In this document: positions 1,326-22,156 of the stretch, in pieces
How the letters are laid out: each line of letters starts with the position of its first letter
Numbering within the stretch: the stretch's first letter is position 1
Source of the DNA: Porodaedalea pini
Lineage: Eukaryota > Basidiomycota > Agaricomycetes > Hymenochaetales > Hymenochaetaceae
Assembly: GCA_002794775.1 (NCBI GenBank)
Contig: NBAY01000002.1
Span: 434,001-498,000 of the forward strand
DNA: 64,000 nt
Reading direction: 5' to 3'
Notes under the pieces: model-generated
Database searches by the model: none
Told to the model about the DNA's origin: nothing
What the model saw: the letters and a program-made list of their open reading frames with translations, nothing else
Position numbers and translations under genes: made by a program

Positions 1326-2029
1326 CGCGGGTTCGGGTGTCGAAGGTTCTGGGGGAGTCGGCGGTGAGGGGTCTCTGTTGGTCTCGCGGTAAGGGCCTGG
1401 GGTCGGTGGTAGGTTGACCGTAGATGTTGACGGTGCGGGTGACGACGGAGCGGCTGGGGGCCACCTTGCTCTCCTTCCTCGTTCGTCTGATGAATACCAG
1501 CTGCGCCGGATTTCACTCCACCAGATGTCGTGAGTGACGCCGCTATTATTGGTCGCGACGTAGCCTGGTCGGTCTGGATCCCAACGGGCTGAAGCAGGAA
1601 GGGCCCGTTGCTGTTCGTCGGTGAGATCTATCTTGACGTTGGCGGAGGGACAGGGATCGGTTGCGCGTTCGATCCGGGGTTACGCCAACGTTGAGCGGGT
1701 TCATCAGCGAAGTTGATGACGAGGCGGTAGGATCCGAGTGAGATTACAAACGAGATCGTCGTTGAAGTTTGGACTCGTCTAGTTACCCACGTCCACGTCA
1801 GGTGCGTGCTCCACCAGAGGCTAATTCGTAGAGCCAGGGTCGGGAGATGTCGGTTGATATGTTTACGTAATACACGAACGTCCGAAAACGTCCGGGCAGG
1901 GTTGAGGGTTGTCGTTCAGGGGGTTTACACGTCAAATCCTTCGAGGGGAGCGCTCCTCTAGACTGAGTGAAGGCGAGTCGACAGCGACGACGTACGCTGG
2001 GGATGAGCCTGGGTGGGGTTCTGCTTTTA

Positions 2030-2452
2030 TGTTAGGCGGGAGTCCGGGAGACGACTCGGACTGGGCAGGCCTCGGCTGACTGTCGTCTGGGACGTGCTAT
2101 ACTCGAGTGTAGACTCGGGACACGCTTTCTCAGGCTAGGTCGACGCGGAGGTAAGAGGATTAATACAAGACTAGACTAATACAAGGGGGACGAGTCTCAC
2201 CTAGGTCGACGCGGAGGTAAGAGGAAAAGCAGAACAAGGAGTTCATGCGATTCCTGAGACCTTATATAGCGACGACCGTGAGACTATATTACCTAACATT
2301 ACATAACGAGTGGGAATGGAACGAATGAAGGTCGTGTAGAGGGAGTGTGGGAAGTGATTGGAAAGATGATTAAAGATAATGAAAAGGAGCAATTAACAGA
2401 AACGAAAAAGGAAAAGGGGAAATAAAGAAAAGGGGAAGTTCGAGTCCTGACA
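2030..2452 (-). repeat. 5' LTR of the partial chromovirus
   Basis: The repeat is 423 bp and reads TG...CA on the minus strand (TGTCAG start, CCTAACA end). It shares the TATATAAGG box, the GTTCTGCTTTT block and the duplicated CCTCTTACCTCCGCG segment with the LTR at 15898-16310, but its first 100 bp or so are diverged. Confidence 0.9.
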
Positions 2453-2517
2453 TTTGGCTCTGACGCGGCTCACTTCACGTGACATGCACGTGTCACAGGA
2501 CTTATGAAAAAGGCTGT
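2453..2517 (+). repeat. Terminal fragment of a foldback (long inverted repeat) element
   Basis: About 65 bp ending in GGCTGTAA match the right end of the inverted-repeat element at 58490-59344, including the TGACGCGGCTCACTTCA block, with a few differences. The retrotransposon LTR abuts its inner side, so the chromovirus inserted in this element and the remainder would lie to the left of the window. Confidence 0.75.
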
Positions 2518-3382
2518 AATAGTAAAAAATGAAAGGTCTTACTTGTCTCTTCTTTGTTTACGTTCAATGAGGCCGTGCTGCTGCTATTCAACTTCGGAGG
2601 TCGTATTTCTTCCCTTGAATACGCCTTTGAAAACTTTGGGTATGGAGTTCTTTCCCTCTCATTTGCCATGCTTGTGGTTCTACGTGTGCTTGTTGGTATG
2701 CGCTGAGGTTCATATAGCCGGCTTTTATTCTGTTCTCAAGTTTGCGTGCATCGATGGCTACATCAAAGCATCATTAATATCAAGAATAACGTAGGCTTTA
2801 GGCCATCTAATTGGCTGACGACCTGCTTAGACGTGCGAGCAAAGGTGCAATGGCAAAGGATACTTTGTGTGCATTTATACATATTCAGTTTCCATTTAGG
2901 AACGCGTTTGCACGAAGGTCAGGCATGGCAATGACCTAAACCATTTCTGGCTATATATGTGTTCTGAGTTGGAGACTAGATTTCAGCGCTTTGAAATGAT
3001 CGTGAGACTCATAGGGTTCCATACCGAGCATTGCATAATATTTGCTATGCTCTTGCAATGTCCTGGTTGCATGGCCGGAAAATCACGTGGATCAAGAATC
3101 AAGTCGAAGATCCCAATTCCCGGCGTCGATCACGTTCAGTACCTAGCGCACGATAAGATTGATACGACAAACGGGTCAGGTTCCACGTCAGAAACGTTGC
3201 CACTATTAAAAGCCTTCCTCATGACATCTGCAGCCAACTCTTCACGATCAAGCTAGGCCTTGCCATGGAGCAGCTCGATTTACGTTTTCTAAGAGTTCAT
3301 GTGAATAAACGGCAGCATTTACCATTTACTAGTAGACCACCCAGTCTCAGATTTTCTGAAAGACTGGATGTTTACAGGCACC
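2518..3382. other. No recognisable gene
   Basis: Only short unrelated open frames occur here (longest under 100 codons, none with a recognisable domain). It lies between the foldback fragment and the left edge of the proposed KDZ element. Confidence 0.5.
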
Positions 3383-3409
3383 ATAGCTTATTCGTTGAAC
3401 AAACAACTC

Positions 3410-3710
3410 ATAATGAGTTGAACGGTTTATTCTAAGTAATTCTACTTTACACGGATAGATACTACATAAAGACATACCATAAGAGCCGTTCAAAATGACC
3501 GGATCAGCAAAACATAAGATAAAATGTAAGTCCATGAACGGTTCACAAACGAACCGAACAGATTAAGAACAAAGCAAGGTGAAAATAATATGAACCGTTC
3601 TAGGCGGCCTGAAATTATAAGACAAACCAGCGTACAGAAAAACCATTGAACCTGAACGGTTCAATGATTTTGGACCAGCCAGGAGCAAAGCACACACTGG
3701 TTCACCGTCT
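3410..3710. repeat. Left subterminal GAACGGTTCA repeats
   Basis: The palindromic decamer or close variants occur at about 3418, 3484, 3535, 3591, 3653 and 3699, in both orientations. The same motif clusters at the opposite edge (15603-15785) and was not noticed as a cluster elsewhere in the window. Such repeats often serve as transposase binding sites; that role is inferred. Confidence 0.6.
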
Positions 3711-3811
3711 TTTGTGCGTCGTTTGTTTCTTCTTTGGTGTAGGGAAGTCAGCGTCAGGTCTAGGACTAGAAGGAAGTTAGATATAGCAAATATAAATGAG
3801 ACGGAGGCAAC

Positions 3812-5399
3812 TCACGGGAGAATCAGCTTTCGACGGCTTTTTCGTAACTCTTCACCTTCCATTGTAATTCGTCTACGTTTTCTTGCATTTCTGACTGGCT
3901 CCGATCTTGGGATATCTTCCTCCTGGAGTGGAACAGCGTTGGCAGGCTGTGTCATCAACAAGTCAACTTGCATGCCACACTGAGACTGCTGAGGATTACG
4001 CTCTGATTCGGGCTCAGGGACATCTTCATGCAGTTCAGGGTTGTTTGTCGTGCTGCAGCCATCTTCAAGACTGAAGGTTTCAATATCAGGGCCAAAATAA
4101 TCACTTTCACTAGGGATAGGCGCCATCGTAACATTGTCTGATGAGTGCAGGATATCGTCAGCCGCATCTTCAATCAAGGGCTTTTGCTGATATGAAAGTA
4201 GCGGTGATGATTGCGCTTCATCACTGCCATGGAGAGGGGTAGCGAGAGGCTGGCCACATGGATCAGTTGGCTCGGAGTGTCCGCTACATGTCTCCATATA
4301 TGGAGACCCAGACCGTGACTGCTCCGACTCGGGGGTTTGCGCAGAAGGTGGTGAGGGAACCACATCACATTTGACGGGTGAGACATCGTCGAAGAACTCG
4401 TGATTTGACTTCAATAGAGTCTCTCTGGCAAATGCTTTCCAGGATTTTTTTACGCGACTCTTCTCATAGTACCTGCTTTCTTCAAAAGAAGCACCATTAA
4501 ACACTGTGTGAACACTTATAATATTGTTAGCGGCGGTTTTGAGAGCTTGAATACAATTATACGTACGCATCGGCCTTAAGCTTCCCATCTGGTATAGATA
4601 TGAATGCGTATTGGACTGTAAAAACAGCATCTCCAACAGAAAACAAGTTCTTTCGCCCGCCAAGCGAAGATACAAAGGTAGATAGCGCATCCCTGAGCTT
4701 GGACTGGTTTCTATGGTACGTTTTAGCTTTTTTAGTCCACTTCGTTAGTTTGAATAACTTACTCAGCTACCGTCTCATCACCCAAGCCTTCCATGAGCAC
4801 CTTCGAGCTCTGCCCATTCTCCTGCTTTGCGCGACGGTTGTATTCGGCCTTCTCCTCCTCAGATAGGGCATCATAGACATTCTTCTTCACGATGGCGTCA
4901 AGCCCTCTCTTACTTCCTTCTGTAGACTCCTTGATGTCTGTAGCACGCCTTTCGACAATGTCCTTGTTTTCGCGCAAGAATATATCCTTCCCACTGAGCT
5001 TGCGTGGTGCGTGTTTCTCAAAGAAGTCAGCCAATACAGCTGTGTCTTTCTTGTCGACCGTAGTGCAAGGTGTGAGACCCTTGCCCTTGTAGTCCCTCTT
5101 GACGTTAGAAAGTCTTCGAATAACCCTCTGTAACATGTCAGGCTTTGATTGGAATGATAACAAAAAAAAAATACCTTTCTAATACGGTCCAAATCCGTTG
5201 TAAAGCCAAAGTGTTTGATAAAGTCCTCTGCTAAGTTCTGCTTGAAAGCGATGACTTGCGCATGCCTATGTTGCTCATGAGGGAGGGCAAAGAACTCGGC
5301 CTCGCGAGCTGATATAAAAGCCAGTTCGTCCTTCTTGAAGTTCTCTCGCTTCTTCTCTTTTACTTGGGAGACGGTCAAGTCAGCAGTCAGAGATGCCAT
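3812..5399 (-). CDS. HMG-like nuclear protein (cargo of the KDZ region)
   Basis: Four exons (5399-5175, 5127-4763, 4710-4567, 4514-3812) join in phase to 478 residues. Residues about 120-182 resemble the helical part of an HMG box or a related fungal module (RENKDIVERRA near its start, ALSEEEKAEYNRRAKQEN at its end). A Lys/Arg-rich helix (KSRVKKSWK) follows near residue 270, then an acidic Ser/Pro-rich tail and a basic C-terminal cluster (ARKRRR) that looks like a nuclear localisation signal. Introns are 47-52 nt with GT-AG ends. DNA or chromatin binding is inferred from the HMG-like segment and the basic clusters; I cannot name the family. The splice phases agree throughout, so the model is probably right, but a further 3' exon cannot be excluded. 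Confidence 0.65.
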
Positions 5400-5975
5400 A
5401 GTAGAGAGTTTGTAGTCTAGTAGTAGAGGGGCGTCAGCGCAGTATATGAAGCAATTTATAGGCCACTCACATTGTTATGCTCGGCAGAAACAAATGTGAG
5501 CCACATGAGCAAGGCCATGATAAACAAATGTGCACTTGGGCATCTACAGGCCTCATCCAAGCGCAGAAATGTGGTCGCCGGTCTTGAGGCCAAACTCTGC
5601 AGGCCACTCAAGAATCATCTAAGCGCTCGAGAATAAGAGGACAGCCGGCTTATCGGAGAGCATGTCGGAGAGCTTGGAGACGGCCCAGTTATTTATTGTG
5701 GCCCTGATAATCCCATTTTAGCAAGCCCTCCTATTGATATAACGGTAGTTACGCACCTCAAGCCCAGTGGCACTGGCGCAAGAATAAACGATCGATCAAA
5801 CGAACGGATGCCTTATGATGGCTCTTCAAATGACAAGCTTAAGGAGTGCTATTTCCTTACGAATACACATGGACGCGCTTCTAAGGTATAAGAAGCGCTT
5901 TCCCTATGGGTATATTGACGCGCTCCAGGCGCTTCGTACATAATTGAAAATACATGATATCAAGTTGACATAGAT
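5400..5975. promoter_or_regulatory. Intergenic region upstream of the HMG-like gene
   Basis: No gene is seen. A short hairpin-forming sequence (GCGCTTCT ... AGAAGCGC) lies near 5876-5900, and GACGCGCT recurs about 40 bp downstream. The 5' flank of the HMG-like gene must lie here. Confidence 0.3.
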
Positions 5976-7445
5976 TTAATTATATCCAACCTTCCGCGCG
6001 CGTTTCACATTTCCCTTGGAGTCACCTTCGGCAGAGCGGACACGTTTCCCAGTAACTGATCTGGTCGACATACTGGCTTCATTATCTTCGTGATCAGATG
6101 AGGGGACCAGTATTTTCGGCCCATATGCATGCTTCAAGGACACTGGTCGTTTAGCCAAAGGCACGTTCTTGCGCGCAACCCTCTGAAGAGTAGGACTGGA
6201 AGCCTCGTTAGGCGTTCCGTCATCGGAATCGGATGTGATGTCAATGACCGGGATCATATGACATGATGTTGGTTGAGCGGGGGGCTTGTGCCTAAATGCT
6301 TCGAGGATCTCGCGGCCGAAGGTTCCTGGTGAAACCGGCGAGGAGCTAGGACGGCTCCCAGGCGAAGAGACGCCAGAACTGGCTGGTACAGCGCGCGAGG
6401 ACGCGTTTCGGGGACGTGGCTTTGGCTGCAACTTCACTGGGGTAGTCGTGACTGTTGCCTGTGAAGAACTAAAAGACGTCTCGTTCTTGATGGATCCCTT
6501 GCGCGACGAAATTAACGATGACGAGGTCGATTTCCCCCGCATGTCGACCCGTGGATTCGGCGGCGTTGACTCCATCGGGGGGACACGAAGGGGGTCCTCA
6601 TCCTTGACAACTGACATCCTCGGTGAGGGGCGCGATAAAGAGTACGGAAAAGGTTGTGTACGCATATCGCTCACATCACCCGTCTGTCCTCTATTCCGCC
6701 TGCGTTGCACCTCCTCTATGCGTCGCATCGCGGTCGGGCTACGATTCTTGAAGCCACTCGGGAGTAAAGACTTCCAATTCGCCTCGTTGCCGGCGCGAAT
6801 CGAGACCCCTAGAAGAGCGGGTGGGTTCAAGTCCAGACACTCCCGGACAACAGTCACTTTCTCTGCATCGCTAAGTTGGACTTTCTCCAATGGCAGTTGC
6901 TTGGAGTAATCTTTCTTACACTGCTTAGTTTCATTAGAAAATCTCGTAGTATGCACAAATTGAATATCAGCGTACCACGAATAGTAACTTTCCGTATGAA
7001 GATAATGTCTTACCCTCTCCTAATCCCAGCTGAATTTCGTGTTCGCCCTCGCAGCCTGGGACAGCGCATTTCTCAGACATCTCGAGAAAAGTCTCTTCGC
7101 ATTTGTCCGACGAAGGAAGATAAGCCAAGAGGATATCGAGCTTGCGTGCATCGAAGCCTACAGGTGGCTTCCCTATAACCGGATAGTAGAGCATGTCGAG
7201 TAACTCGATAGAATAATTCTTGAACTTTTTGCAGAGCAACGTACATCTTAAATACATGCGAGACATGAGGCCCCAGAGCATAACGATTTGCCGCTTAGGC
7301 CAGTATACGCGCGAGTAGCATGTGTTTTGCAACATAAGATCACGACAAACACAATTACAAATGAGTACTCACCAATGAATGAGGCATAGACCATGGCCGC
7401 TTTAGACAAGAGCACCAATGTCAGCCAAACCTTGATTGGCTCCAC
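5976..7445 (-). CDS. Unrecognised cargo gene, exon structure uncertain
   Basis: The 3' exon (about 6920-5976) encodes some 310 residues, rich in Ser/Pro with several basic patches and ending KGNVKRARKVGYN, typical of a disordered nuclear protein. A preceding exon (about 7285-7014) encodes a more ordered segment with a hydrophobic helix (YSIELLDMLYYPVI) and CAVPGCEGEHE, a possible metal-binding turn. A short upstream reading frame to 7445 may be the first exon, but an in-frame TGA lies just above it and the phases of the first and last introns could not both be fixed. I do not recognise the family. Its position between the HMG-like and SPT5-like genes, on the same strand, makes it part of the proposed element. 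Confidence 0.4.
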
Positions 7446-7671
7446 TCAACGTATTGTGAACGACCAGGTGGTCAGTACATTGTCCAAGCACGTCTCCTTC
7501 ACGCGATCAGGTCTTACGACAGGGTCACAGAACGCATATAAATTAAGTAATAATGATAATTCTACAGGGGAATGTTAAGTCCCGCGCTCTTGCGCTCTCA
7601 TAAAAGAACGTAAAAAATCTGCAGAACAGATACATTAGGAAGTCGTGTAGTGGAAAACAATGGTTTACTTA

Positions 7672-10527
7672 CTAACGCTGGATCTGCTCGACCATTGTCA
7701 AGTTATTTGCAAGCTCATCCCAAAGCCGAAACTTGTCTCCCGGAACAGAAACCGTAACCTTCTTTGGTCCACCTCTCGCTCGGGGCAACGCTACGACACG
7801 GAGCAGCCTGCCGACGTTTCCTTGAACCAAGGCTCTGATCTGTATAACAAGCTCGCCTTTTTTCGTAGGTTGGCGAGGCTCCAAGTCAGAGACGGCGACA
7901 AGCGAGGCGGATACGCCGTGGCCTGTATCGACATTGACTTTCATGTAACAACGCTCGTGGGATGCGGTGCAGCTGGCGTGATCGCTGAAAGGGTCGTCTG
8001 AGAGAAGGATACCGCATCTGTCTTTTGACGAGACCTTGACGTGTATTTTGTAATGAGTGAATAAAGCCTGGACGGCAGGCAAGAATATCCACATTCCAGG
8101 TCCCGAAAAGTCTATTAAGTGTGTATTGTATAATTAAGTATGTAAGCTAATATGCAATGAATCTCACCAGATGGCGGCGGCGGGGGGTTATTGAGCATCT
8201 CGTCGGCGGTCAGTTGCCAATCAGTAGAAGAGGGCGGCGGCGGCGGCGGAGTCGACTCACGCAAGGGAGGATCGGTAGGCTTGAAGCGTTTGAACTTCTC
8301 GCCATACTCGAGCTTCTCTGCGGTCGACAAATGGTGGCGGTCATCTAGACATGCTACGTCGTTGCTACAAAATCAAATAGTTAGATTGTGAAATATTAAG
8401 ACGGACAAAAACACACATAGAGATAAGATTCTTCAGAGGGAAGATCTCTACCGTATTGTTGCTGCCGTAGGCGACCTCCGCAGTTTTCTTCGTCTCATCG
8501 ACACTCTGCACGTAGCCGCGGAATCCCTTCGCAAACTTTGCACTTCCGTCGACGCCGCGAATGAAGACATATGCGCCAAGATAAGGGTTTCTACGCTGAG
8601 CTTCGTACGCATGTAGATCACGCTGCTTGCCCTTCACATCGTCGTCGACCGAGCATTCGACGACTCCAGCCACGGGCAAATCGAGCTAATAATTTAGTAA
8701 TAACATTAAATACGTCTAATGTACAATAGTTGCATCCCTTACCATTTTTTTTACGCGGTCGAAGATGCAGACGCGCACCCTATCATTGTGAACCGCGAAA
8801 ACGAACGCTCTGTGTCCTTTGCGTGGACCTTCCAATATCATGACGCTGGCACCCAAAGAGAGCTTGGAGCGATGGATTTTATGTGTGACGGCACTATTGC
8901 CTTGATCGGTCGCAACCCAGCCCCTTCGAATGCTCAGCTACATTTTTATTGCACAAAAAGAACTGAAAGTCAGTAGGGCGACATAAAAGCGGAAAATATG
9001 ACGTACAAATTCCTCATTTTCGTCGACGAACAGCGATATATAATTTTTTTCCAACGCCATTATGTTACCGGTAGAACCGCTTCGTGGTCCAGCCTTCACA
9101 ATGACGTTATCTCCGAGATGGAGAAGTCGACGGATAGCACTTCGCGGCACGGGAATGTTCTGTAATAGCGGATCCGTCTCTTGAAGTTCACGGACCTTAT
9201 GCCGAGAAAGTAAACAATGCAGTCCGACATCGTCAATCTCCTGGTCCGAAAGCCCTACAAGTGCACTATCTATGCGACAGACTTGATCCAGAACAACAGA
9301 GTTGTCGTTAACAGTCATAACTAAGCCGGCCATCATTTGATACGTTCCAGAAAGTACAACTGCCGTATCGCCATGTTGCACAAAATGCTCTATTCCTTCC
9401 AGATTGCCCATGTCCGTGTGAGAAAATAAAAATACTTGATGAAGAGAGGGTGATGCTGCTTTAACAGAATGAAGTCCAGGAACCGTAAGAATGCGTAAGT
9501 AATCAATATAATCCGCTTTGCGAAATCGAAATTTGTTGTCCGATAGTTGCTTGATTGTTTCGTTCGGAAACTCTTCGGCCAGAAGTCTTGGAATTGCGAG
9601 TTTAGGCGGAGCGCGTTTCGCCGGTATACTGCTCGTTGCTGATATGCGCGGAACGACTGCCACCTTCATTGCGTCGCCATCCAGGAGCTCCCGAACTATG
9701 CCGAAATCTCCACGATACGTACCCCGACGCACGACAACCCAATTCCCGACTTCGTACTTCATAGAGTGCAGTCCATTCAAACAATCAAAGACCGAATTAA
9801 CCTCGTCCCGAGGGACGAAGGACAGCGAGCGTGCCGGAAGGGAGATGCCGCGAGCAACGTAAGATTGGCGGACAGTCGACGCATTCGGTGTCCACACGTA
9901 TATTCGACCGGGGAGAATGTCCACAGAAAACACTAAGCAAAAATTTGGTAGCCAGTCCAAGGCGATGGAAACACCAGTTTTTTCTTTTCCAGGCTTTATA
10001 CTGTGGTTAGTTTATTTCGTGAAATGAAGATATAATGTACTCACTGCAACGCGTATCATCACCAACTCGTATTTTGAGTCGTCTATGCCAGCGTCGGGAG
10101 GAAAGCGGCCGCACTGCACAAAGGACTGGACAGCTGGATGATACCCGACGTCGTTGTCGTGGGGGGCTGGTCCAATGCGCGCACGCTTCCTATACCTCTC
10201 AGCAACGGCCTCGAGATCTTCAGCGTCGACCATTTCAAGTGTAACGCGCGACGAGGAAGCCTGCGGCTCAGCTGGCCGAACGTCGTCATCGATGAACTCT
10301 CGGTCTGCGTAATTATACTTCAATGACAAGGAATATAAGAGAAACCGGACACATACCTTCATCGTCGTCAGCAAACTGATCGTCGTCGTCGTCGTCGAAC
10401 ACCTGGGCCTCCGTGTCAAAATATCTCAGCACCTCTGCGCGGATGCCTGCCGTGATCTGATATCAACATTTTAGTTTTATTTTGGTTACATTCTCTCAAT
10501 GCTTTGGTATAAAATCACCTCAGCCAT
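7672..10527 (-). CDS. SPT5-like transcription elongation factor paralogue
   Basis: Eight exons (10527-10519, 10456-10357, 10304-10045, 9993-9007, 8937-8743, 8685-8417, 8364-8168, 8111-7672) join in phase to 818 residues. An Asp-rich N-terminus (residues about 20-45, including a run of six Asp) is followed by a NusG/NGN-like region (PGRIYVWTP near 150) and at least five KOW-like segments, each with a G-x-x-V-x-V pattern: VGNWVVVRRGTYRGDFG near 205, HGDTAVVLSG near 335, LGDNVIVKAG near 415, LGASVMILEG near 482 and LGAYVFIRG near 552. SPT5 with SPT4 binds RNA polymerase II during elongation. This protein lacks an obvious heptad C-terminal repeat region and carries a Pro-rich patch instead. Its position beside a transposase suggests a mobile cargo paralogue rather than the housekeeping gene. 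Confidence 0.8.
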
Positions 10528-11023
10528 GTCGTATTTCAAAAATTTCCGACGTCCCGCTCGCAATTTAACTAATTTTGTACAGGAAAAGCTCGCAAACTAC
10601 GTATCTAAGCCTATGTACTTACATTCAAATATCACCAATTATATTGAGGGCGGTTTCTAACAGAATGAAGGAAAGAAAGTGGACGCACGATCTGTTTGGC
10701 AATCCAACGCAGCCAATGTAAGAGCAATCGGATGCACGATCTGCTTGACGATCTCGCTCAAGCACTATCGATGACGCTTTTGTGGATTCTGAGCTCGAAA
10801 CGTCCAACCTGAAATGCAAACCGTGCTCATTGCAAAGAGAATATTGTTCAGCTGTGACGCTTACCGGCTGTAGGGGGTAAATCCGGCGGGATTTCAGCAG
10901 AAGAGACAAGAGCAGACAACGCACTCACCAAGACCAATCCCTGCAAAAGAGGCAACAAGAATGTATGGAGGAGAGTAGATGGCCACAGAACGAACAAAAA
11001 AAATGAGGTGGATGACGGACAAT
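10528..11023. other. Intergenic region upstream of the SPT5-like gene
   Basis: No supported gene. Short open frames are present but none has a start with good context or recognisable sequence. Confidence 0.4.
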
Positions 11024-11317
11024 GCCACAGCAGCGAGCGGCCACAGCAGTGATGATAGTGGAAGAGCTGAAAGGCGCGACCCGGTGTTCGCCGAGCGCTT
11101 TTGTTCGCGTCGATTGTGGGAATTTCCTGCCTTGCTGAAGCGTACGAAAGGTTAACATAAGCTTAACCGTAGATCAGCTTCTGTAAGCTTACATGAAACA
11201 CTTTCAGAAGGCAGTGAGTCCCCACAATCGACGCGAACAAAAGCACTCGGCGAACACCGGGTCGCGCCTTTCAGCTCTTCCACTATCATCACTGCCGTGG
11301 CCGCTCGCTGCTGTGGC
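11024..11317. repeat. Inverted repeat, about 97-bp arms with 100-bp spacer
   Basis: Arms 11024-11120 and 11221-11317 are near-perfect reverse complements. The right arm contains CGACGCGAACAAAAGC and ends with GCTCGCTGCTGTGGC. It lies between the SPT5-like and KDZ transcription units, which diverge from it. It could be a small foldback insertion or part of a shared promoter; neither reading is proven. Confidence 0.85.
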
Positions 11318-11939
11318 CACTCGCCGACGGTCTGTCCGCCGCCAAGACCATGCCTTAAAAGTGATCGACATTCCTCCGCTGTCTATTGCTTCCAGTTAGG
11401 CTTTTCGCGGATATGGCATCCGTGCTCCTCATTTGATGAACTGTGAACTACTGATTGGGCTGGCTAACATTCTGGCATGCGCAGGGACATGATTCCAAAA
11501 CTGTACATCAAAATTGCAATGTGAGACCAAACCAGTTTTTCTATTCGCTGTTCATACTGATGTATCGCATCGATCTATAGACAATAGTCGTCATATATTC
11601 AGTTTTGGGTTTTAATTTTATTTGTTTTAATTTCATGACTTGTATGTACGTAGAATAGATGTCCGAACTTTATCGTAAAAGTCCTGCATGATAGCAGGCG
11701 AACAATGAGATTGCTATCGTAAAATGTACCTAGCACGCATGAAAGGAAATGCAGAGGAGCCATGCGCGCTCTTGTTCAGAATGAACACGGTGTAGTCTAC
11801 CAAGGCATGGAGATTCACGACGGTGAGTACGATCATAGCAATTGTTTAGCATGATCTTGTTATTCTGACTGGTTTTCTTGCGCGATGAACCGGAAATCCT
11901 GCGTGTGCTTCGAGCCAACGAATTGTCCTCATACTTTGC
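11318..11939. other. Region upstream of the KDZ transposase gene
   Basis: No supported gene. A short ATG reading frame at 11763-11821 ending at a possible GT donor could be an upstream exon of the transposase gene, but no in-phase acceptor was found. Confidence 0.35.
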
Positions 11940-14900
11940 ATGGTCCGCAAGCGCAATTACACGGTTGGTCTACACAGGACAGAGGTCCGGTACGACTCCA
12001 GTAGCGACGACTACAGCAGCGATGAGTCGAACAGTTGTTTGTCCAGCAGCGGCGGTGAGGACATAGAGGAAACTAAAGGTAGAATGCGCAGCTCCAGTGA
12101 CGAAAATAGGGTCCGAGTACTGGTGAGCGACTCTATGACATTCTTACAACTAATTAATGACTGCAGTCTATGTAGGCCGTCTCGGTCAAAGATACGTCCG
12201 CGAAGACCGACTCAATGATGGAGGAGGGGGATCCTTATTCAATGGTGCATTTGTTCTCCTTCCCTGTCGTATCGATCTGACGCAATGTCTTAGCCTCAAT
12301 CTGCTGAAGCATTTCTGGCCGAGTTTACGGCCTTCCACGATCAAATCCAGGCAGCATTAATTGATTTCGAGTACGATGCCATGGTCTTGACACCATGCGA
12401 ATGCAAGAGACGAGGAAACGTTCGACAATTTCGCTGTTTCGACTGCGCTCGAATCGAGGTCGTTTGTGAGGAATGCCTGAAGGAACGTCACCGCCTTCTT
12501 CCATTTCATTGGGCAGAGAAGTGGACCGGAGAATACTTCGAACGTATCGATCTGAGCTCCCTCGGGCTTTTGATTCATCTCGGTCACAGAGGGCGCCGTT
12601 GCGAATCAGTTGCTGCGCCCACGACTCACCTTCTTACTGTAGCTGACATCAATGGCATTCATAAATGTAAAGTAATTTATTGTGGATGCGCAGGGAAGGA
12701 GCACGAAGTCCTGCAGTTAGTAAAGTACGGGTTGTTTCCTGCTTCCGCCAAGTTCCCTCACATTGCGTTTACGCAAAACGCGCTGCGTGATTTTCACGTT
12801 CATACTACAGTATCGAAGAAGTCGGCATATGACTATGTCGAAGCTCTTCGGAAGAAGACTAATAATTTTAATCCGTCCTCTGTGAGTATAGGCACCAAAT
12901 TACTGAAGAATTATCATTAACTGCGTTCTAGGTACCGACCGCGCAATTTATCCGCATAGCACACTACTGGCGCCTGCTTTCCGCTGAACGCAGGAGCGGT
13001 CAACTTCATGGGTTTAACGACGAGACAATCCGGCGTCCTCGGGGATCTTTTGCAATACCTTGCCTCGCATGTCCACTCCCCGGGTTTAATACCAATGAAG
13101 TTCTTTCCGATGAGTATGTTTCGTATTTGTTTGTGAGACCTGAGTTTACGTTTCTGTCTAGATTTAAAAACTCAAAATTCTTGTCGGTCGATGCGAACTT
13201 TCATCTTATCGGGTTGAATAAAAGGAACAATCTATGTGAGAAGGCAATGTGGGATGGGCGGGGGTATGTGAGGAAACAAGAAGACCTGGATGCTCACATC
13301 AACGAATTCGGCGACATAAGAGAAGAGGTATGGTTCCTTTCATAAGAATAGAAACCTCTCTCATTTCGATCAGAAAAGTAGCTGTTCCAATTTTGCTGCA
13401 ATTCAGAACGCAAACAATACGTTGAAGCATCGTGGCCAGAATGCCAGCGGATTAGTCGTTGTCTTATGTAGACACGGGCTCTGCGAACCAGAAGGCGCCG
13501 TGAATTTGCAGAAGGGCGAAAGGTATGTCCTTATGTCTCCATCGAAGTCGAGGACTGAGATAGCAACTTACAGACACATCAACGTCGATTATGCGCTCTC
13601 GGGCGCATTGAAGTGTACAGAGTCGATCCCCAGAATCAACCTCTCTTATGATATTAACTGCCAATATTCTGTTAATATCGTAAAAAGATTTCAGAAATGC
13701 TTCCCCCAGCAAACTGATATTGTCCGTGATGTCGTGAAGTATTTTATTGGCACGTTTCATGCCAATGGCCATAAGCATTCATGTCAATATGGGTACTCTT
13801 TACCTTTCACGCATGGTGTCGGCCGCACAGATGGCGAAGAAGTGGAGCGATATTGGGCAGAAATGAACCAGGTGGCAGGCAGTACGAAACAGATGGGGCC
13901 CGGCCACCGCTGTGACACCCTAGACGACTTCAATGCAGCTTCTAACTGGTCGAAAATCCAGACCATGGGTATGATTTTTTTTTTTTTGCTTCGGAACTGA
14001 TTGCATACGATCTCGTAGGTGTCACTCTTTATGAAAGACGTAAATTGGCTGTCAATATGGAAGATGAGTTCAAGAAATCTTTTAATGATTTAGATACGAG
14101 AATTCGAAGGCTTTACTCTGACAAATGCGTTCGCGACTGGGAGATCGCAGACACGAAGCCTACGAAGGATCAAAATGGCGAATGGACAAGTGTTTATCAG
14201 CTGCAGCTCTCCTGTATGTATCGAGTCGTACCTATTTTATCGTTGTCTATTGCTCATCAGTCTGCAGCTATCCCATCGTTACAAAACCTTCCCAAGGCGA
14301 AGCATCGAGCAACGCGAAGCACCAGCAAATCTGCTATGGATGTAGAAGATTTCATTTACGAGGCAATATCAATTCAAAGGAGACAGTAAGTCATTTGAAT
14401 TTAATTCCTAAATATATTACGACGCTGACATGCTTCACACAGGCTTTACGTGAAATCAAAATCACAAGAAAATAGTTCAACGGTTTCGCTCAACACTTTG
14501 ATGCAGGACATAAAGAAGTGGGAAACGAGAAGTCCAAGCTTCATGCCTAACGTTACGCAGCCTGCCCCGGATGACCCCCGTGGAGATGTAGAAGAAATTC
14601 AGTTACGCCTTCCTTCATCCTTCACAGATGACGAGCGACGAGTCCTCGGGCTTCAAGAAATAGCAAAGGTTGAGTATAAACTACGCGAAGGCCAGGCTTA
14701 TGACGCTCTTTCCGAGCTCAGAGAAGCTATCCGTGGCTTGCAATATCTTACAAAGTTGAAGCAGAAATATGGGCACGGAAAGCAAGCCAACACGCGAACC
14801 TCGCATGCGAAATCTCACGAAGCGGATATAAAGCACAAGTCAATGATGGAATATCAAGCGGCTCGTCAATATCTGCTTGCGCTTGGCATGCACGAAAGCA

Positions 14901-15551
14901 ATGCCAAACTACGTCCTCTCTCAGAAGCAGATACGTACCGTCCTGCAGTCTCCGAACCTCACGAACTTGGCTCTGGAACTAAAGCACTTGGGTGGATTTG
15001 GACTGTCGGAGGAGATGAATTGGACATCGAAATTTTGCCTGGTACCTTAGAAGGTATTGTTGATTTTGTAGTTTGTTTTTTGCCTTTGCTCTTTTCTTAT
15101 GACCTTCTAGAAAACCGTGTTTTGTGGTTCCGGACTCGTGCGCTGAGGGATCGTTGGCGAGAGGAGCGCATTATTGTTGAAGAGGAATGCAGGCGATTGG
15201 TGAGAGGGTTTGATGCGTGGTCAGCATTGTGGGGATCAGTGTCGAAGGATCTATGTGAGCGTAATGATTTTGGGTCTTCAGCATTTGCCGCACGCAAAAA
15301 TGCCGTATACAGCGCAATGGCCAATAACGTCCGTTTGGTGCTCGGCGATTTCAAAGTTGATGACAAGCCAGCTCAGGGAACTTCACCTCAGCGTCGAAAG
15401 CGCAAGCATACAAGTACAGAAGTGTTGGAGAAGCGCAGTAAGCCTGGCATTCATGTGTTTGATATATTCATCCTAATTCTAAGGCTTTCAGAGCGGTACG
15501 CGATTTGAGCCTATTCAATCAATCGAGGAAGAACTTGGACGTTTCAAATAG
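11940..15551 (+). CDS. KDZ-family transposase with N-terminal Cys cluster
   Basis: Eleven exons (11940-12122, 12176-12244, 12294-12881, 12932-13113, 13162-13327, 13407-13968, 14019-14213, 14268-14385, 14443-15053, 15111-15437, 15484-15551) join in phase to 1022 residues without a stop. A Ser/Asp-rich N-terminus precedes a cysteine cluster (CECKRRG, CFDCARIEVVCEEC; residues about 120-150) of the kind found with KDZ transposases. The catalytic-type motifs are all present: FLSVDANF, LSYDINCQY and EEVERYWAEMN followed by STKQMGPGHRCDTLDDF, giving an Asp-Asp-Glu set. KDZ transposases are RNase H-fold enzymes that move large DNA elements in basidiomycetes. Because the frame is uninterrupted, the gene may still be functional. 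The start at 11940 fits the usual short basic N-terminus but is not proven. Confidence 0.85.
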
Positions 15552-15602
15552 ATCATTACTCCAGTAGAATGAGCTTATCGCTATGCCTGTAGTTTTGCAT
15601 CA

Positions 15603-15822
15603 TGAACAGTTCAATGTTTTTATTTGTGACACTCCAATTGCGCACGCCACAATAAGAACGGTTCAGTTGCTATATTCCGGGTTCTACAGGAATGGGTATG
15701 TATGTAATATAATAAAGAACAGTTCAGGTCTAAGAGCACCGGGCCAGTTGACGTTATGTAAGATGAACAATTAATGAACGGATAGACTCACAAAGGAGTT
15801 ATCTGTTGAACAAATAAGCTAT
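15603..15822. repeat. Right subterminal repeats and inverted edge
   Basis: TGAACAGTTCA or AGAACGGTTCA-like motifs occur at 15603, 15656, 15717 and 15775, matching the left cluster. Bases 15795-15822 are the inverted counterpart of 3383-3410. The chromovirus inserted 75 bp further right. Confidence 0.6.
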
Positions 15823-15897
15823 TATGTTACATGTTTATTACTCGAGTCCTTAGTCCACTAACGCCCACAGTATGTGTTAATTGACTTTCCAGAGTAG

Positions 15898-16310
15898 TGT
15901 TAGAACCTGAACTTTCACCTTTTCCTTTATTTTCCCTTTTACCATTTCCTCTATTATATTCGTCCTTTTCATTATATTTACCCATCTTACACAATCATTC
16001 CCACACTACCTTCATTCGTTCCATTCCCACTCGTTATGTAGTGTTAGGTAATATAGTCTCACGGTCGTCGCTATATAAGGTCTCAGGAATCGCATGAACT
16101 CCTTGTTCTGCTTTTCCTCTTACCTCCGCGACGACCTAGGTGAGACTCGTCCCCCTTGTATTAGTTTAGACTTGTATTAATCCTCTTACCTCCGCGACGA
16201 CCTAGCCTGAGTAAGCGTGTCCCGAGTCTACGCTCGAGTATAGCACGTCCCAGACGACAGTCAGCCGAGGCCTGCCCAGTCCGAGTCGTCTCCCGGGCTC
16301 CCGCCTAACA
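15898..16310 (+). repeat. 5' LTR of complete chromovirus
   Basis: 413 bp, TGTTAG...CTAACA. It contains a TATA box at 16072 and a direct repeat of about 23 bp (CCTCTTACCTCCGCGACG...) at 16116 and 16181. Confidence 0.97.
16072..16080 (+). promoter_or_regulatory. LTR TATA box
   Basis: TATATAAGG lies 33 bp before GTTCTGCTTTT (16105-16115), the block complementary to the priming site. This is a normal TATA-to-start distance and places the RNA 5' end at that block. The 3' LTR has the same box at 21901. Confidence 0.7.
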
Positions 16311-16311
16311 T

Positions 16312-16322
16312 AAAAGCAGAAC
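16312..16322 (+). other. Self-priming primer binding site
   Basis: AAAAGCAGAAC begins two bases after the 5' LTR and is the exact reverse complement of GTTCTGCTTTT at 16105-16115, the predicted 5' end of the transcript. There is no TGG-type tRNA site here. This matches the Tf1/sushi mode, in which the RNA 5' end primes its own reverse transcription. The pairing is seen directly; the mechanism is inferred from that group. Confidence 0.75.
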
Positions 16323-17020
16323 CTCACCCAGGCTCATCCCCAGCGAAAGTCGTCGCTGTCGACTCGCCTTCACTCGGTCTAGAGGAGCGCTCCCCTCGAC
16401 GGACTTGACGTGTAAACCCCCTAAACGACAACCCTCAACCCTGCCTGGACGTTTTTGGACGTTCGTGTATTACGTAAACATATCAACCGACATTTCCCGA
16501 CCCTGGCTCTACGAATTAGCCTCTGGTGGAGCACGCACCTAACGTGGACGTGGGTAACAAGACGAGTCCAAACTTCGACGACAATCTCGTTTGTAATCTC
16601 ACTTGGATCCTACCGCCTCGTCATCAACTTCGCTGATGAACCCGCTCAACGTTGGCGTAACCCCGGATCGAATGCGCAACCGATCCCTGTCCCTCCGCCA
16701 ACGTCAAGATAGATCTCACCGACGAACAGCAACGGGCCCTTCCTGCTTCAGCCCGTTGGGATCCAGACCGACCAGGCTACGTCGCGACCAATAATAGCGG
16801 CGTCACTCACGACATCTGGTGGAGTGAAATCCGGCGCAGCTGGTATTCATCAGACGAACGAGGGAGGAGAGCAAGGTGGCCCCCAGCCGCTCCGTCGTCA
16901 CCTGCACCGTCAACGTCTACGGTCAACCTACCACCGACGCCAGGTCCTTACCGCGAAACCAACAGAGACCCCTCACCGCCGACTCCTCCAGAACCTTCAA
17001 CACCCGCACCCGAACCCGCG

Positions 17021-18100
17021 ATGTCAGCAGAAGGTTTCAGCCAACAGCAAATGGCACAGATCGCGGCCATCGTTGCGAATGCCTTCGCCCATCAGGCGAA
17101 CAACGCCCCAGCACCGGTCGCGGCCGCTAACCCCCCGACCCCCAACATAGATGTCGCCCGGCCACGAGAATTCACTGGTGGCGACGATTACCTCGACTTC
17201 AGACGTGAAGTCCTCCTTTTTGTATCCGCAAATCCAAGTCGATACCCTACGTCAGAGAGTAAGATTTATGTAGCTCTCTCCTACCTGAAGGGTGGTAATG
17301 CGGCAATGTGGGCGCAGAACTACGTCAAGGAGTCGACAACGTCGGGGATCGTCACCTTCACTGACAGCTGGGAAAGATTCCAGGAACGACTCGACGCCTC
17401 GTTCGACGACCCAAATCGCAAGGAGAAAGCGCTGAAGGATTTCCGAGATAAGGTTCAGAAGGACCTAACCGCAGACGAGTTCTTCCAGAAGTTCGACGTG
17501 ATAATTAAGCGCGCCGAGTTGAAAGACGACAGCGTCATCTGCGATCGCCTCAAGCGGGCGATGAACATCGAGGTGGTCCGTGGAGTGCTAAGGTCGACGC
17601 CAGTCCCAACGAAATACGAGGATTGGAAGAACAAGGCGATTGAAATAGACCGCGGCGAACAGCAGATTCGCGCTATCCAACGAGGACGCGCCTTTCTTCC
17701 CCCTCCTCGCCTACCACAACAAGCGCCCCCAGCTCGCCGTCAGGTAGCGGCCCCTCACGTCGACAGACGTGATGCGACCGGTGTCACCTTTGGAGGCGCT
17801 GGTCAACCGATGGACGTCTCGATGAACGAGGCACAACGACGACGTGCGTGCTGGATCTGTGGTGGGCTGGGCCACTTTAAAGACAAGTGCCCACAGGCGA
17901 AACCGATCATCCAGCGCATGCTGGAACTGATGGCGCCAGGCGAACGTCGTGTCCTCGCCGACGAGCTCGGAGCGATGAAGGAGTCGGCCTTCGAGGAAGT
18001 CGTAGACACTCGGAGGTCGACGGTGGAAGACTATGTGGAGGAAGAAGGTGATAACGAAGAGGTCGTCGACTCGCAGGGTTTTGCGAATGGTCAGGTGTAG
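17021..18100 (+). CDS. Gag polyprotein of complete chromovirus
   Basis: 359 residues from the first ATG. A capsid-type retrotransposon gag region (about residues 45-230) precedes a basic Gln/Pro-rich linker and one zinc knuckle, CWICGGLGHFKDKC, near residue 280, then an acidic tail. Gag forms the virus-like particle and packages the RNA. The frame is open without an ATG back to about 16664, and differences from the copy at 1326 onward in that stretch are almost all at third positions, so Gag probably starts further upstream. The last codons contain the heptamer G GGT TTT (18076-18082) in phase, ahead of the TAG stop. Confidence 0.93.
   Translation: MSAEGFSQQQMAQIAAIVANAFAHQANNAPAPVAAANPPTPNIDVARPREFTGGDDYLDFRREVLLFVSANPSRYPTSESKIYVALSYLKGGNAAMWAQNYVKESTTSGIVTFTDSWERFQERLDASFDDPNRKEKALKDFRDKVQKDLTADEFFQKFDVIIKRAELKDDSVICDRLKRAMNIEVVRGVLRSTPVPTKYEDWKNKAIEIDRGEQQIRAIQRGRAFLPPPRLPQQAPPARRQVAAPHVDRRDATGVTFGGAGQPMDVSMNEAQRRRACWICGGLGHFKDKCPQAKPIIQRMLELMAPGERRVLADELGAMKESAFEEVVDTRRSTVEDYVEEEGDNEEVVDSQGFANGQV
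18076..18082 (+). promoter_or_regulatory. Putative -1 ribosomal frameshift site between gag and pol
   Basis: The heptamer G GGT TTT is in the gag reading phase (codons CAG GGT TTT), 16 bases before the gag stop. A -1 slip here enters exactly the pol frame, which is open from this point. It is kept in the other copy (264-270, minus). Confidence 0.65.
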
Positions 18101-18231
18101 CCATCGGGGCGACTGACCGAGAAGAACAAGAGACTTCGAATCCGGATCCGCTAAAATATAACCAACCGTTTGTACAATACGTAGATGCGAACAACGTCGA
18201 TGGTTTTCCTGATTACGAAGTCTCCACCGGT

Positions 18232-21200
18232 GTGAACAAGAATGAAGAGTACGAACAACTGTTCATGAGAGGAACTGGCGGACGCCAGCTGGACCTTCTC
18301 CTGACCGTCGAGCATGAAGTAGCTGGGGAGGCGAGAGAGGTAGATGCGCATGCCCTTGTGGATTCGGGATGCACGGGATCCTGCATCGACGTCAGGTTCG
18401 TCGAGAGGTACGGGTTGGAAACGAAACGCTACATTCGACCCCTCGCGGTGCTGAACGCCGATGGCACGCACAATGAGGCCGGATTGATCGAGGAGTACGT
18501 TGACGTCGAACTCATGATCGGCCGTCATTGGGAGAAGATCGTCCTCGCGGTAACGTCCCTAGCGTCATCGAACATCTTCCTGGGGTACGACTGGCTTCGA
18601 CGTCACAATCCGGAGGTCGACTGGAAAACGGGCTCGATCGAATTCACCCGCTGTCCAGAAGAATGTGCGATCGAGAGAGAGCCGGTGGAGGACCTAGGCG
18701 AGGTGAAGAAGGTGGTGGAGCAGATGAGGAGGGTGAGTGAGATGCGAATGGACAAGACGTCCTGGCCCGCATACCTCAACGACTACGCCGACGTTTTCAG
18801 CGAAAAAGGTTTCGAGAAGCTGCCGGAACACCGACCCTGGGACCATGTCATTGACTTGAAGCCCGACTTCAAACCGAGCGACTGTAAGATCTACCCGCTC
18901 ACGCCGACTGAGCAGCAGTCACTCAAGGACTTCCTTGATGAGAACCTGAAGTCGGGTCGCATTCGACGGTCGATATCGCCCATGGCGTCGCCCTTCTTCT
19001 TCATTAAGAAGGCCGACAAATCGCTACGCCCGATCCAGGATTACCGTAAGCTCAATGACGGTACGATCAAGAACAAGTATCCCCTCCCTCTCATTGACAA
19101 ACTCGTCGACAAGGTCAAGAAAGCGAAATACATCACTAAGCTTGACCTTCGCTGGGGGTACTACAATATCCGGATCCGCGAGGGTGACGAATGGAAAGCA
19201 GCGTTTCGCACGAACATGGGCCTCTTCGAACCGACGGTCATGTTTTTTGGCCTTTGCAACGCGCCGGCCACGTTCCAGGCCTTTGTCAACCACATCTTTA
19301 AGGACCTAATCTATGCGAACTTGATCATCGTATACCTCGACGACATCCTGATCCTCTTGGAAACCATTGAGGAGCATATCGACACGTCGAGGCGCGTACT
19401 CCAGATCCTCCGAGAGAATGGCCTGTACCTGAAGCCGGAGAAGTGCGAGTTTGACGCCAAGGTCGTCAAATACCTCGGCCACATCATCGGCAATGGAGAG
19501 ATCAGGGCTGACCCGACAAAGACGGAGGCGATTGCGAACTGGCCAGTCCCACGGAACCTCAAGGAGCTGCAACAGTTCCTCGGCATGGGAAACTGGCTGA
19601 GACGGTTTATTAAGGACTACAGCAAGGTGGTCCGACCGTTGACGTCGTTAACGGGCAAGAAGGACTGGGTATGGGAGACCGAACAGCAGGAAGCGTTCGA
19701 GGAGCTGAGACGACGTCTCTGCTCACCTCCAGTCCTAGCCATTGCCAATGACGAGGGCCCTTTCCGCGTAGAAGCGGACTCGTCGAACTTTGCGCTCGGT
19801 GGTGTGTTGTTGCAGAAGCAGGAAGGGAAGTGGAGGGTGATCGCCTACAGGTCAGAGGCGCTTGAACCGGCGGAACGAAACTACGAGATCTACGACAAGG
19901 AGATGCTCGCGATCGTTTCGGCGCTCAAGGAGTGGCGGCAATACCTCCTTGGCGCTCGCCACAAAATTGAAATCTGGTCCGACCACGCCAACCTCACCTA
20001 CTTCAGGTCAGCGCAGAAGCTGAGCTACCGTCAAGCTCGCTGGCGAACCGAACTCGAGGAATTCGACTTCCACCTCGAACACAAGTCGGGGAAGACAATG
20101 GGCAAGGCCGACTTGCTGTCACGCAAGGCGGGCTATGATCAGGGCAAGGATGACAATGACGGCGTCGTGTTCATCAAGGAGAAATGGCTGAACCGTGGGG
20201 TGGTAAGGACGTCGCGTGATGAAATGTTGGAACGAGTGGGTGAGGCGCAGAGAGCGCAAGACGAGTCGGAGAGGCCGACGAATATGGTGAAGGTCGACGG
20301 GTTGTGGTGGATGAAAGGCAAGGTGTACGTGCCGTCGACGATGAAGGAAGCGGTATTGCGGGAGTACCACGACTCGACCCTGGCAGGACATCCTGGATCA
20401 TCGAAGACGGTCGAACTGGTACGTCGAGACTTCTGGTGGGCGTCAATGTTCTCCGATGTCCGAACATACGTCCGAGGATGCAACCGTTGCCAACGGACGA
20501 AAGCCTTAAGAACGTCGAGGTCGAGACCGCTTCATCCTAACGCGATCCCTGAAGGTCCCTGGGAGATCGTCACGGTCGACCTAATCGGAGAACTCCCGGA
20601 CTCTAAGGGACACAATGCAATCTGCGTCTTCGTGGACAGATTCTCGAAACAGATGCATGCCATCCCGACGACGACGAAACTGTCAGCGGAAGGCATGGCT
20701 CAGTTATACCGAGACCACGTCTTCCGCCTCCATGGCCTACCGAAGAAGATCATCCACGACCGAGGCACACAGTTCGATGCGTCGATGATGAAGGAGCTAT
20801 ACAAACTCCTACACATCGAAGGCAACCCGTCAACGGCATACCACCCACAAACGGACGGTCAGACGGAACGCGTCAATCAAGAGCTCGAACAGTACCTCCG
20901 GCTCTTCGTCGATCATCGGCAATCGGACTGGAAGGACTGGCTCCCCCTCGCAGAGTTCGCCTACAACAACCACGAACATTCAGCGACAAGGATGTCACCC
21001 TTCTACGCAAACACCGGACGTCACCCTATGAGCTTCGACACCGTACGAACTTCCTCTGCCAACATGTCGGCGGAAGAATTCGCCAAGCACATCAAGGAGA
21101 CTCATCGCGTTGCTAAGGACAATCTAGTCAAGGCAGCAGAGGACATGAAGCGCTACCATGACCGGACAGCAGGAGCTTCGGTGGAGTACAAGGCTGGAGA

Positions 21201-22139: not shown

Positions 22140-22156
22140 AGTAGATTCCGATTTCA

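What the first reader, a model, noticed from the sequence alone, without database searches (positions are those of the whole stretch)
3383..15822. Putative 12.4-kb KDZ element carrying SPT5-like, HMG-like and unknown genes
Seen: a KDZ transposase gene with its D-D-E motifs and no stops, three other genes, inverted edges matching at 23 of 28 positions, and clusters of a palindromic GAACGGTTCA motif at both ends and not elsewhere. Known: KDZ elements in basidiomycetes are large and can carry extra genes. Inferred: the block moves as one unit, and the SPT5-like and HMG-like proteins help expression or targeting of the element or modify host transcription. I know of no description of this cargo combination.
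Basis: partly seen in the sequence, partly recalled or inferred. Interest (0 to 1): 0.85.

Follow-up and report, generated by a model that had tools for sequence, protein, structure and literature searches.

The report
Jumping gene carrying an SPT5-like gene
A 12.5-kb fungal DNA transposon carries, besides its transposase, an intact gene for a distinct SPT5-like transcription-elongation protein that recurs with at least two unrelated transposase types in the same genome, hinting that some eukaryotic jumping genes bring their own helper for being transcribed.

Summary
Contig C131 of the same assembly holds the empty site with one ATGTTTA. Three more full-length copies share both ends, gene order and strands. 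All 26 GAACNGTTC sites of the four copies lie in the terminal 400 bp. The element encodes a KDZ transposase, an SPT5-like protein (818 aa, 8 exons, open), an unknown protein and a weakly HMG-like protein; 39 of 39 exon comparisons between copies show purifying selection. SPT5-like genes lie within 20 kb of 33 of 53 KDZ loci, and a related family has Plavaka transposases nearby. Cargo proteins share a C-terminal domain not found at the host SPT5 locus and lack its repeat tail. A 294-bp palindrome marks the 5' side of the SPT5-like gene at 19 of 19 matching loci. Most likely role, inferred: sustaining transcription through silenced, CpG-methylated element DNA. New variant of a known kind; no description found in the held library, but the key 2014 paper is not held.

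The parts
3375..15830 (.). Complete KDZ-type DNA transposon, 12,456 bp, from 5'-CAGGCACC to TATGTTAC-3'
   Evidence: Empty site on G000:C131; copy alignment and end comparison
3368..3374 (.). Left copy of the 7-bp target site duplication ATGTTTA
   Evidence: Single ATGTTTA at the empty site
15831..15837 (.). Right copy of the 7-bp target site duplication ATGTTTA
3375..3410 (+). Left terminal sequence, imperfect inverted match to the right end (25 of 36)
15795..15830 (-). Right terminal sequence
3536..3662 (.). Left cluster of subterminal GAACNGTTC sites (3536, 3592, 3654)
   Evidence: 26 of 26 sites of four copies lie within 400 bp of an end
15604..15725 (.). Right cluster of subterminal GAACNGTTC sites (15604, 15656, 15717)
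3812..5402 (-). HMG-like gene (approximate; exons near 5402-5186, 5139-4765, 4700-3812), resembling an HMG box only weakly
5976..7276 (-). Unknown conserved gene (approximate; two or more exons)
7672..10527 (-). SPT5-like gene, 8 exons, 818 aa: acidic N-terminus, NGN-like region, KOW motifs, cargo-specific C-terminal domain
11024..11317 (.). 294-bp palindrome (86% identity to its own reverse complement) between the SPT5-like gene and the transposase gene; putative shared control region
11942..15508 (+). KDZ transposase gene (start and first exon approximate, not fully modelled), with CxC2 and KDZ domains, D, D and E motifs open

Best explanation
SHOWN: window 3375-15830 is a complete 12,456-bp DNA transposon of the KDZ superfamily that inserted as one unit with a 7-bp target duplication; it carries a transposase and three further genes whose exons show purifying selection between copies. 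INFERRED: the transposase binds the subterminal GAACNGTTC repeats and cuts and pastes the element; the 294-bp palindrome is a two-way control region for the SPT5-like gene and its divergent neighbour. INFERRED, the functional claim: the SPT5-like protein binds elongating RNA polymerase II through its NGN/KOW region but, lacking the host SPT5 repeat tail and a glutamate recalled to contact Spt4, escapes part of the normal control, and keeps polymerase moving through the element's long genes when the host silences them by CpG methylation. It would work like bacterial NusG paralogs of foreign DNA (RfaH type) and be an alternative to the TET/JBP dioxygenase cargo of other Kyakuja and Plavaka transposons.
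For: Unit: empty site, 98.3% over 858 bp of left flank and 97.0% over 67 bp of right flank; second perfect 7-bp duplication at copy C23, 6 of 7 at C67, 5 of 7 at C46 (read by hand). Selection: in 39 of 39 exon-by-copy comparisons dN is below dS (36 with finite dS: ratio 0.03-0.43; 3 saturated). Association: SPT5-like within 20 kb of 33 of 53 merged KDZ loci, and KDZ within 20 kb of 34 of 49 merged SPT5-like loci; a related SPT5-like family with Plavaka nearby. Divergence from host SPT5: the cargo C-terminal domain is found at the one locus each of KDZ-A, B, C and Plavaka type that was examined (E 6e-15 to 2e-78) and not at the host locus at E 0.1, where the gene has TPGWG-type repeats; the residue aligned to yeast E338 is W in 20 of 20 readable KDZ-A/B and Plavaka rows, I in the one KDZ-C row, E in the host. 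Methylation pressure: in 21 KDZ-A/B loci in-frame stops of the main exon are TGA in 39 of 43 and fall at a window Arg in 26 of 43; CpG o/e is 1.11 in the window copy against 0.79-0.93 in three other copies; cytosine-methyltransferase matches at 3 places.
Against: No expression, binding or methylation data. Pfam's Spt5-NGN model rings only in the host gene, so the NGN of the cargo rests on profile alignment. dN/dS shows that the cargo was useful to the element, not for what; the comparison used exon parts, left out the first and two middle transposase exons, and many dS values are near saturation. 20 of 53 KDZ loci have no SPT5-like match within 20 kb, so it is not indispensable. Both predicted structures were too poor to use. 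The role of E338 is recalled; a search found no paper. The CpG signal is moderate: the GpC control is also lopsided (window to C67 190, back 111, against 361 and 121 for CpG), and 10-kb blocks of the window have CpG o/e of 0.92-1.20. CpG decay suggests that old copies were methylated, not that the SPT5-like protein counters it.
Confidence: 0.5

Rival explanations
1. The SPT5-like protein is a targeting or integration adaptor: by riding on elongating polymerase II it steers the transposase to transcribed or open DNA, as Ty1 and Ty3 integrases use polymerase III factors (recalled).
For: A KDZ match lies within 20 kb of 34 of 49 SPT5-like loci, and in arrangement A the SPT5-like gene shares the palindrome region with the transposase gene; SPT5 family assignment.
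Against: In arrangement B the palindrome lies between the SPT5-like and the unknown gene, away from the transposase; insertion sites were not compared with gene positions; related cargo sits near an unrelated transposase, Plavaka.
Confidence: 0.17
2. The SPT5-like protein is a decoy that blocks a host silencing pathway that itself needs an SPT5-type factor (small-RNA or heterochromatin transcription, as with the plant Pol V partner, recalled, and the Paramecium meiotic Spt5).
For: The cargo profile also matches the plant protein RNA-directed DNA methylation 3 (E 9.6e-6), though less well than ordinary SPT5; Paramecium uses a specialised Spt5/Spt4 complex for germline transcription that yields scnRNAs (passage in PMC11724296); loss of the host-like tail and of the glutamate would suit a competitor.
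Against: No evidence that this fungus uses such a pathway; the best matches are ordinary Pol II SPT5 proteins.
Confidence: 0.2
3. The cargo genes are passengers: host genes caught by chance, with no use to the element.
For: Other copies carry stops, and 20 of 53 KDZ loci have no SPT5-like match nearby.
Against: dN below dS in exons of all four genes, with dS often near 1; gene order conserved at 21 loci; presence near two transposase superfamilies.
Confidence: 0.05
4. The block is not an element but a chance or conserved cluster of genes next to a transposase.
For: None found; related genomes were not available to look for the cluster without the transposase.
Against: Empty site with exact ends and a single target; three other full-length copies at other places.
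Confidence: 0.01

Closest known systems
Kyakuja transposons of Agaricomycetes (KDZ superfamily), Kojima 2025, PMC12730594
   Same: KDZ transposase; 7-bp target duplication; 5'-CA start; no long inverted repeats; element with an accessory gene (abstract, passages and sections 3.2 and 4.2 read)
   Different: Those families carry a TET/JBP dioxygenase and end in CA..TG; this element ends in CA..AC, the genome has no Tet_JBP match over cut-off, and the cargo is SPT5-like. SPT5, KOW and HMG have 0 occurrences in that paper's main text.
KDZ elements with divergent HMG cargo, Iyer et al. 2014 PNAS (recalled, not held)
   Same: KDZ transposase with accessory genes including a divergent HMG protein (recalled)
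   Different: Whether that paper mentions an SPT5-like gene could not be checked.
Plavaka transposons (CMC supergroup)
   Same: A family of five SPT5-like loci, 91-96% identical DNA in the six pairs compared, has a Plavaka match 6.29 kb away at two loci and 15 kb away at a third
   Different: Unrelated transposase; no palindrome within the 1.5-kb flanks held at 4 of 4 such loci examined; ends of that element not determined.
KDZ1-3 of Cryptococcus neoformans, PMC12810828 (passages)
   Same: KDZ transposase of the same superfamily with a CxC domain; elements of about 9.2-11 kb; shown to be mobile
   Different: 4-8-bp duplications (8 bp for KDZ1), 139-241-bp inverted repeats, CxC1 not CxC2, no SPT5-like cargo mentioned in the passages seen.
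NusG paralogs of bacterial foreign DNA (RfaH type), PMC7819879 (passages), PMC2871177 (abstract start in listing)
   Same: Works-like comparison only: a NusG/SPT5-family factor tied to foreign DNA that must be transcribed against silencing
   Different: Bacterial, acting against Rho-dependent silencing; no equivalent recruitment signal is shown here.

Membership tests
KDZ superfamily | KDZ transposase domain (PF18758) over cut-off | tested here: met
   153.5 bits against cut-off 26.6
KDZ superfamily | CxC-type zinc cluster before the transposase core | tested here: met
   CxC2 PF18803 102.7 bits against 27
KDZ superfamily | Acidic D, D and E motifs open and conserved | tested here: met
   DANFHL, YDINCQ and DGEEVE in 4 of 4 copies; that these are the catalytic residues is recalled
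Kyakuja lineage | 7-bp target site duplication | tested here: met
   ATGTTTA, empty site; GCCCTAA at C23, 7 of 7; 6 of 7 at C67 and 5 of 7 at C46
Kyakuja lineage | CA..TG termini | tested here: not met
   CA..AC in three copies and CA..AT in C23; element therefore not filed as Kyakuja
Kyakuja lineage | Transposase groups with Kyakuja in a tree | not tested
   No reference transposases were held
SPT5 | NGN domain | tested here: inconclusive
   Profile of eight cargo rows aligns over yeast SPT5 326-527, E 8.2e-18; Pfam Spt5-NGN finds only the host gene
SPT5 | KOW motifs | tested here: met
   PF00467 31 bits against cut-off 22.3
SPT5 | C-terminal repeat tail as in the host gene | tested here: not met
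   Host locus has TPGWG-type repeats; the 818-aa cargo model has another C-terminal domain; so SPT5-like, not SPT5 proper
HMG box proteins | HMG-box domain by profile | tested here: inconclusive
   No Pfam HMG match; Nhp6A E 0.26 and 0.29; structure model pLDDT 47
TET/JBP-carrying transposons | TET/JBP dioxygenase gene in the element | tested here: not met
   Pfam Tet_JBP: 0 matches over cut-off in the genome; one sub-threshold match on C6, not near any KDZ match. A divergent or intron-split fungal TET could be missed

The most novel reading that the evidence does not exclude
SPT5-like elongation factors form a mobile cargo family of eukaryotic DNA transposons, passed between KDZ and Plavaka elements, that counters host silencing at the elongation step: a eukaryotic counterpart of bacterial NusG paralogs of foreign DNA, interchangeable with TET/JBP dioxygenase cargo on the same transposon types.
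Probability: 0.3. Interest if true: 0.92.

Novelty: new variant of a known kind. Interest (0 to 1): 0.8.

Why it matters
If the reading holds, fungal transposons do not only alter silencing marks (TET/JBP cargo) but also bring a dedicated form of the one universally conserved elongation-factor family. That would make a long-standing question, at which step of transcription fungal DNA methylation silences repeats and how repeats escape, directly testable by removing one gene, and would supply a natural set of divergent SPT5 proteins without the usual tail.

Tried and rejected
Host-gene cluster or chance neighbourhood: rejected by the empty site. Passenger cargo: disfavoured by dN/dS. TET/JBP cargo: no match over cut-off in the genome. 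Relatives in other species: the protein database gave none at E 1e-3 for the spliced protein (7,994 candidates scored) or for the main exon (2,509 candidates), and viral contigs gave none (one stretch matched a pattern, none confirmed); these collections may hold few fungi, so nothing follows about spread. Structure prediction without an alignment gave mean pLDDT 47.1 for the HMG-like exon and 30.9 for the SPT5-like exon, and no fold search was made. NCBIfam gave nothing useful. The six weakest SPT5-like matches (E 5e-4 to 1e-3; 438-767-aa frames) were treated as unrelated after one was read; they are kept in the 49 of the counts. The target duplication of the arrangement-B elements could not be fixed: KDZ-side border exact, but the HMG-side flank is shared by both copies compared. 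The SPT5-like tree puts Plavaka cargo between KDZ-C and KDZ-A/B with only 80/81 support and a long-branch warning, so the direction of transfer is open. Papers on E338 and on KDZ or fungal transposons with SPT5: none found; the two papers are about Paramecium.
Full report
The observation. All are there. The transposase matches PF18758 (E 8.8e-45) and CxC2 (1.5e-29). The motif search with one mismatch gives 15 hits against 4.8 expected, 0 of 100 shuffles reaching 15; 10 of the 15 are at the ends.

Exact ends and proof of movement. Aligning other copies moved each edge out by 8 bp: the element is 3375-15830, 12,456 bp. The left flank 2517-3374 is 98.3% identical to a stretch of contig C131, and the match stops exactly at 3374; there the sequence runs on into the right flank (15831-15897, 97.0% over 67 bp) with a single ATGTTTA, while the window has ATGTTTA on both sides. 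Whether C131 is the other haplotype or a duplicated region was not settled. Three more full-length copies hold both ends: C23 (duplication GCCCTAA, 7 of 7), C67 (6 of 7) and C46 (5 of 7); their aligned pieces are about 69-89% identical to the window copy. A fourth, C25, keeps the left 2.3 kb only.

Terminal structure. The outer 36 bases match inverted at 25 positions. Inside lie GAACNGTTC sites, two to four per end: 6, 8, 5 and 7 sites in the window, C23, C67 and C46 copies, 26 of 26 within 400 bp of an end. Such repeats are a usual kind of transposase-binding site (recalled); binding here is inference.

Genes. The SPT5-like gene was modelled with eight exons, 10527 to 7672 on the minus strand, 818 aa without a stop. 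Its main exon matches SPT5 chains in the PDB (best E 1.1e-6); a profile of eight cargo rows reaches 8.2e-18 over the NGN-KOW1 stretch of yeast SPT5 and also finds the plant RNA-directed DNA methylation 3 protein at 9.6e-6. The unknown gene has no Pfam match for its main exon. The HMG-like exon is only weakly like Nhp6A (E 0.26-0.29), so that label stays open. The transposase start and first exon were not fully modelled.

Selection. For 13 exons or exon parts and three other copies, 39 comparisons in all, dN is below dS in 39; 36 with finite dS give ratios of 0.03-0.43 and three are saturated. The first and two middle transposase exons were not included. The compared codons hold 10 stops in C67, 3 in C23 and 2 in C46 (summed by hand). 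So the cargo was useful while the lineages spread, and these three copies are now decaying.

How common the combination is. In the same genome the SPT5-like exon has 58 matches, 49 after merging; KDZ has 77, 53 after merging; the HMG-like exon 22; the unknown exon 21, 19 after merging. In one search, 33 of 53 KDZ loci have an SPT5-like match within 20 kb and 20 do not; counted by hand, 34 of 49 SPT5-like loci have a KDZ match within 20 kb. The 49 fall into: arrangement A (4 loci, this element's kind; SPT5-like on the opposite strand to KDZ); arrangement B (17 loci; same order HMG, unknown, SPT5-like, KDZ, but SPT5-like on the KDZ strand; the unknown gene is detected at 14 of the 17); arrangement C (12 loci; 35-41% identical SPT5-like, opposite in strand to KDZ, no HMG-like or unknown match of their own, 5 of the 12 at a spacing of 4,175-4,181 bp); one KDZ-linked fragment; and 15 without KDZ. 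Those 15 are the host SPT5 gene, one decayed A-type copy on C25, six very weak matches, two on C106 and five that form a family of 91-96% DNA identity in the six pairs compared. Of the 22 HMG-like loci, 21 lie within 20 kb of an SPT5-like locus; the exception is the truncated copy on C25. The search tool calls such counts lower bounds.

A second transposon superfamily. Beside one of the five KDZ-less copies (C1:2296630) lies an open frame matching Plavaka (PF18759, 51.1 bits against cut-off 26.3). In the whole genome, two of the five loci (C1:2296630, C107:34672) have a Plavaka match at the same distance, 6.29 kb, and orientation, and a third (C1:2568350) has one 15 kb away in matching orientation; the other two have none within 20 kb. 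The ends of that element were not determined, so its unity is inferred from the repeated spacing.

One cargo family, distinct from host SPT5. The only Spt5-NGN match of the genome is the host gene on C24. The cargo C-terminal domain is found at the one locus of each type examined: KDZ-A C46, KDZ-B C76, KDZ-C C5 and Plavaka-type C1 (E 2e-78, 4e-64, 6e-15, 8e-22), and not at the host locus at E 0.1, where the gene instead carries TPGWG-type repeats. At the position aligned to yeast E338 (numbering from the alignment; its role in Spt4 contact is recalled and one search found no paper) the host has E, 20 of 20 readable KDZ-A/B and Plavaka rows have W, the one KDZ-C row has I, and one row (L036) does not cover it. 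The tree groups A, B and Plavaka cargo each on one side of a branch (94/91, 92/91 and 100/100), with Plavaka joining A+B before C at 80/81 support and a long-branch warning.

The palindrome. Window 11024-11317 is a 294-bp palindrome, 86% identical to its own reverse complement. Searched as DNA it has 19 distinct places in the genome, all 19 on the 5' side of an SPT5-like locus (compared by hand). Among loci L018-L031 a self-complementary stretch was detected at 13 of 14 (L031 does not reach that far), and at 0 of 4 Plavaka-type loci. In A it lies between SPT5-like and transposase, in B between SPT5-like and the unknown gene: the SPT5-like gene and the palindrome appear to have been inverted together. 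A two-way promoter is the simplest reading; it is inference.

Silencing pressure. In the SPT5-like main exon of 21 KDZ-A/B loci, 39 of 43 in-frame stops are TGA and 26 of 43 fall where the window has arginine, the mark of C-to-T change at CpG; some of these stops may lie in introns or frameshifted ends. CpG o/e is 1.11 in the window copy and 0.93, 0.79 and 0.92 in C23, C67 and C46; four 10-kb blocks of the window give 0.92-1.20. CpG of the window copy reads TG, CA or TA in C67 at 361 places against 121 the other way; the GpC control is also lopsided but less, 190 against 111. Cytosine-methyltransferase matches occur at three places. No Tet_JBP match passes the cut-off. [quoted passage not shown]

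Mechanism and rivals. The reading that I commit to is that the SPT5-like protein helps polymerase II through silenced element DNA. It fits the SPT5 family, the loss of the host-type tail and of the glutamate, the CpG decay of old copies, and the parallel with TET/JBP cargo on Kyakuja and Plavaka elements (Kojima 2025, PMC12730594: abstract, passages and sections 3.2 and 4.2 read). It is not shown. A targeting adaptor and a silencing decoy are live rivals.

Known and new. Membership in KDZ is met on three of three tested features; membership in Kyakuja is not claimed because the CA..TG ending is not met. HMG cargo on KDZ elements is recalled from Iyer et al. 2014, which is not held. No paper linking KDZ or fungal transposons with SPT5 was found in the held library; only 20 of 186 papers were listed and only 40 of 68, and most subscription papers are absent, so prior description cannot be excluded.

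Noticed in passing
window 15892-22139: LTR retrotransposon with 419-bp LTRs 99.8% identical and a Ty3-type gag frame, inserted about 60 bp right of the KDZ element; absent from the empty site on C131. The empty site also lacks window 22140-22676, not explained.
   Followed up: partly
window 1800-2453: Repeat with at least 39 further matches elsewhere in the genome, 38 of them at 97-100% identity (40 of 2,259 candidates scored); kind not determined.
   Followed up: no
window 3812-5402 against 12294-15505: The HMG-like module of the window copy is closest to C67 and C46 (dS 0.3-0.7) and far from C23 (1.1-2.9), whereas three of four transposase exons have their lowest dS to C23: the element looks mosaic.
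   Followed up: partly
L058-L061 (C76 and C38): Arrangement-B elements start GTAAATTCACAGGAGCTTCG at an exact border on the KDZ side and probably end CAGGCATCACAGG on the other; no target duplication found, and the HMG-side flank is shared by both for about 2 kb or more.
   Followed up: partly
L049 (G000:C8:382300-384800) and five other places: A repeated long open frame (438-767 aa) with a marginal match to the SPT5-like exon (E 5e-4 to 1e-3), kind unknown.
   Followed up: partly
G000:C25:235712-240994: Decayed arrangement-A copy with unknown gene, SPT5-like gene and palindrome but no KDZ match within 20 kb.
   Followed up: no
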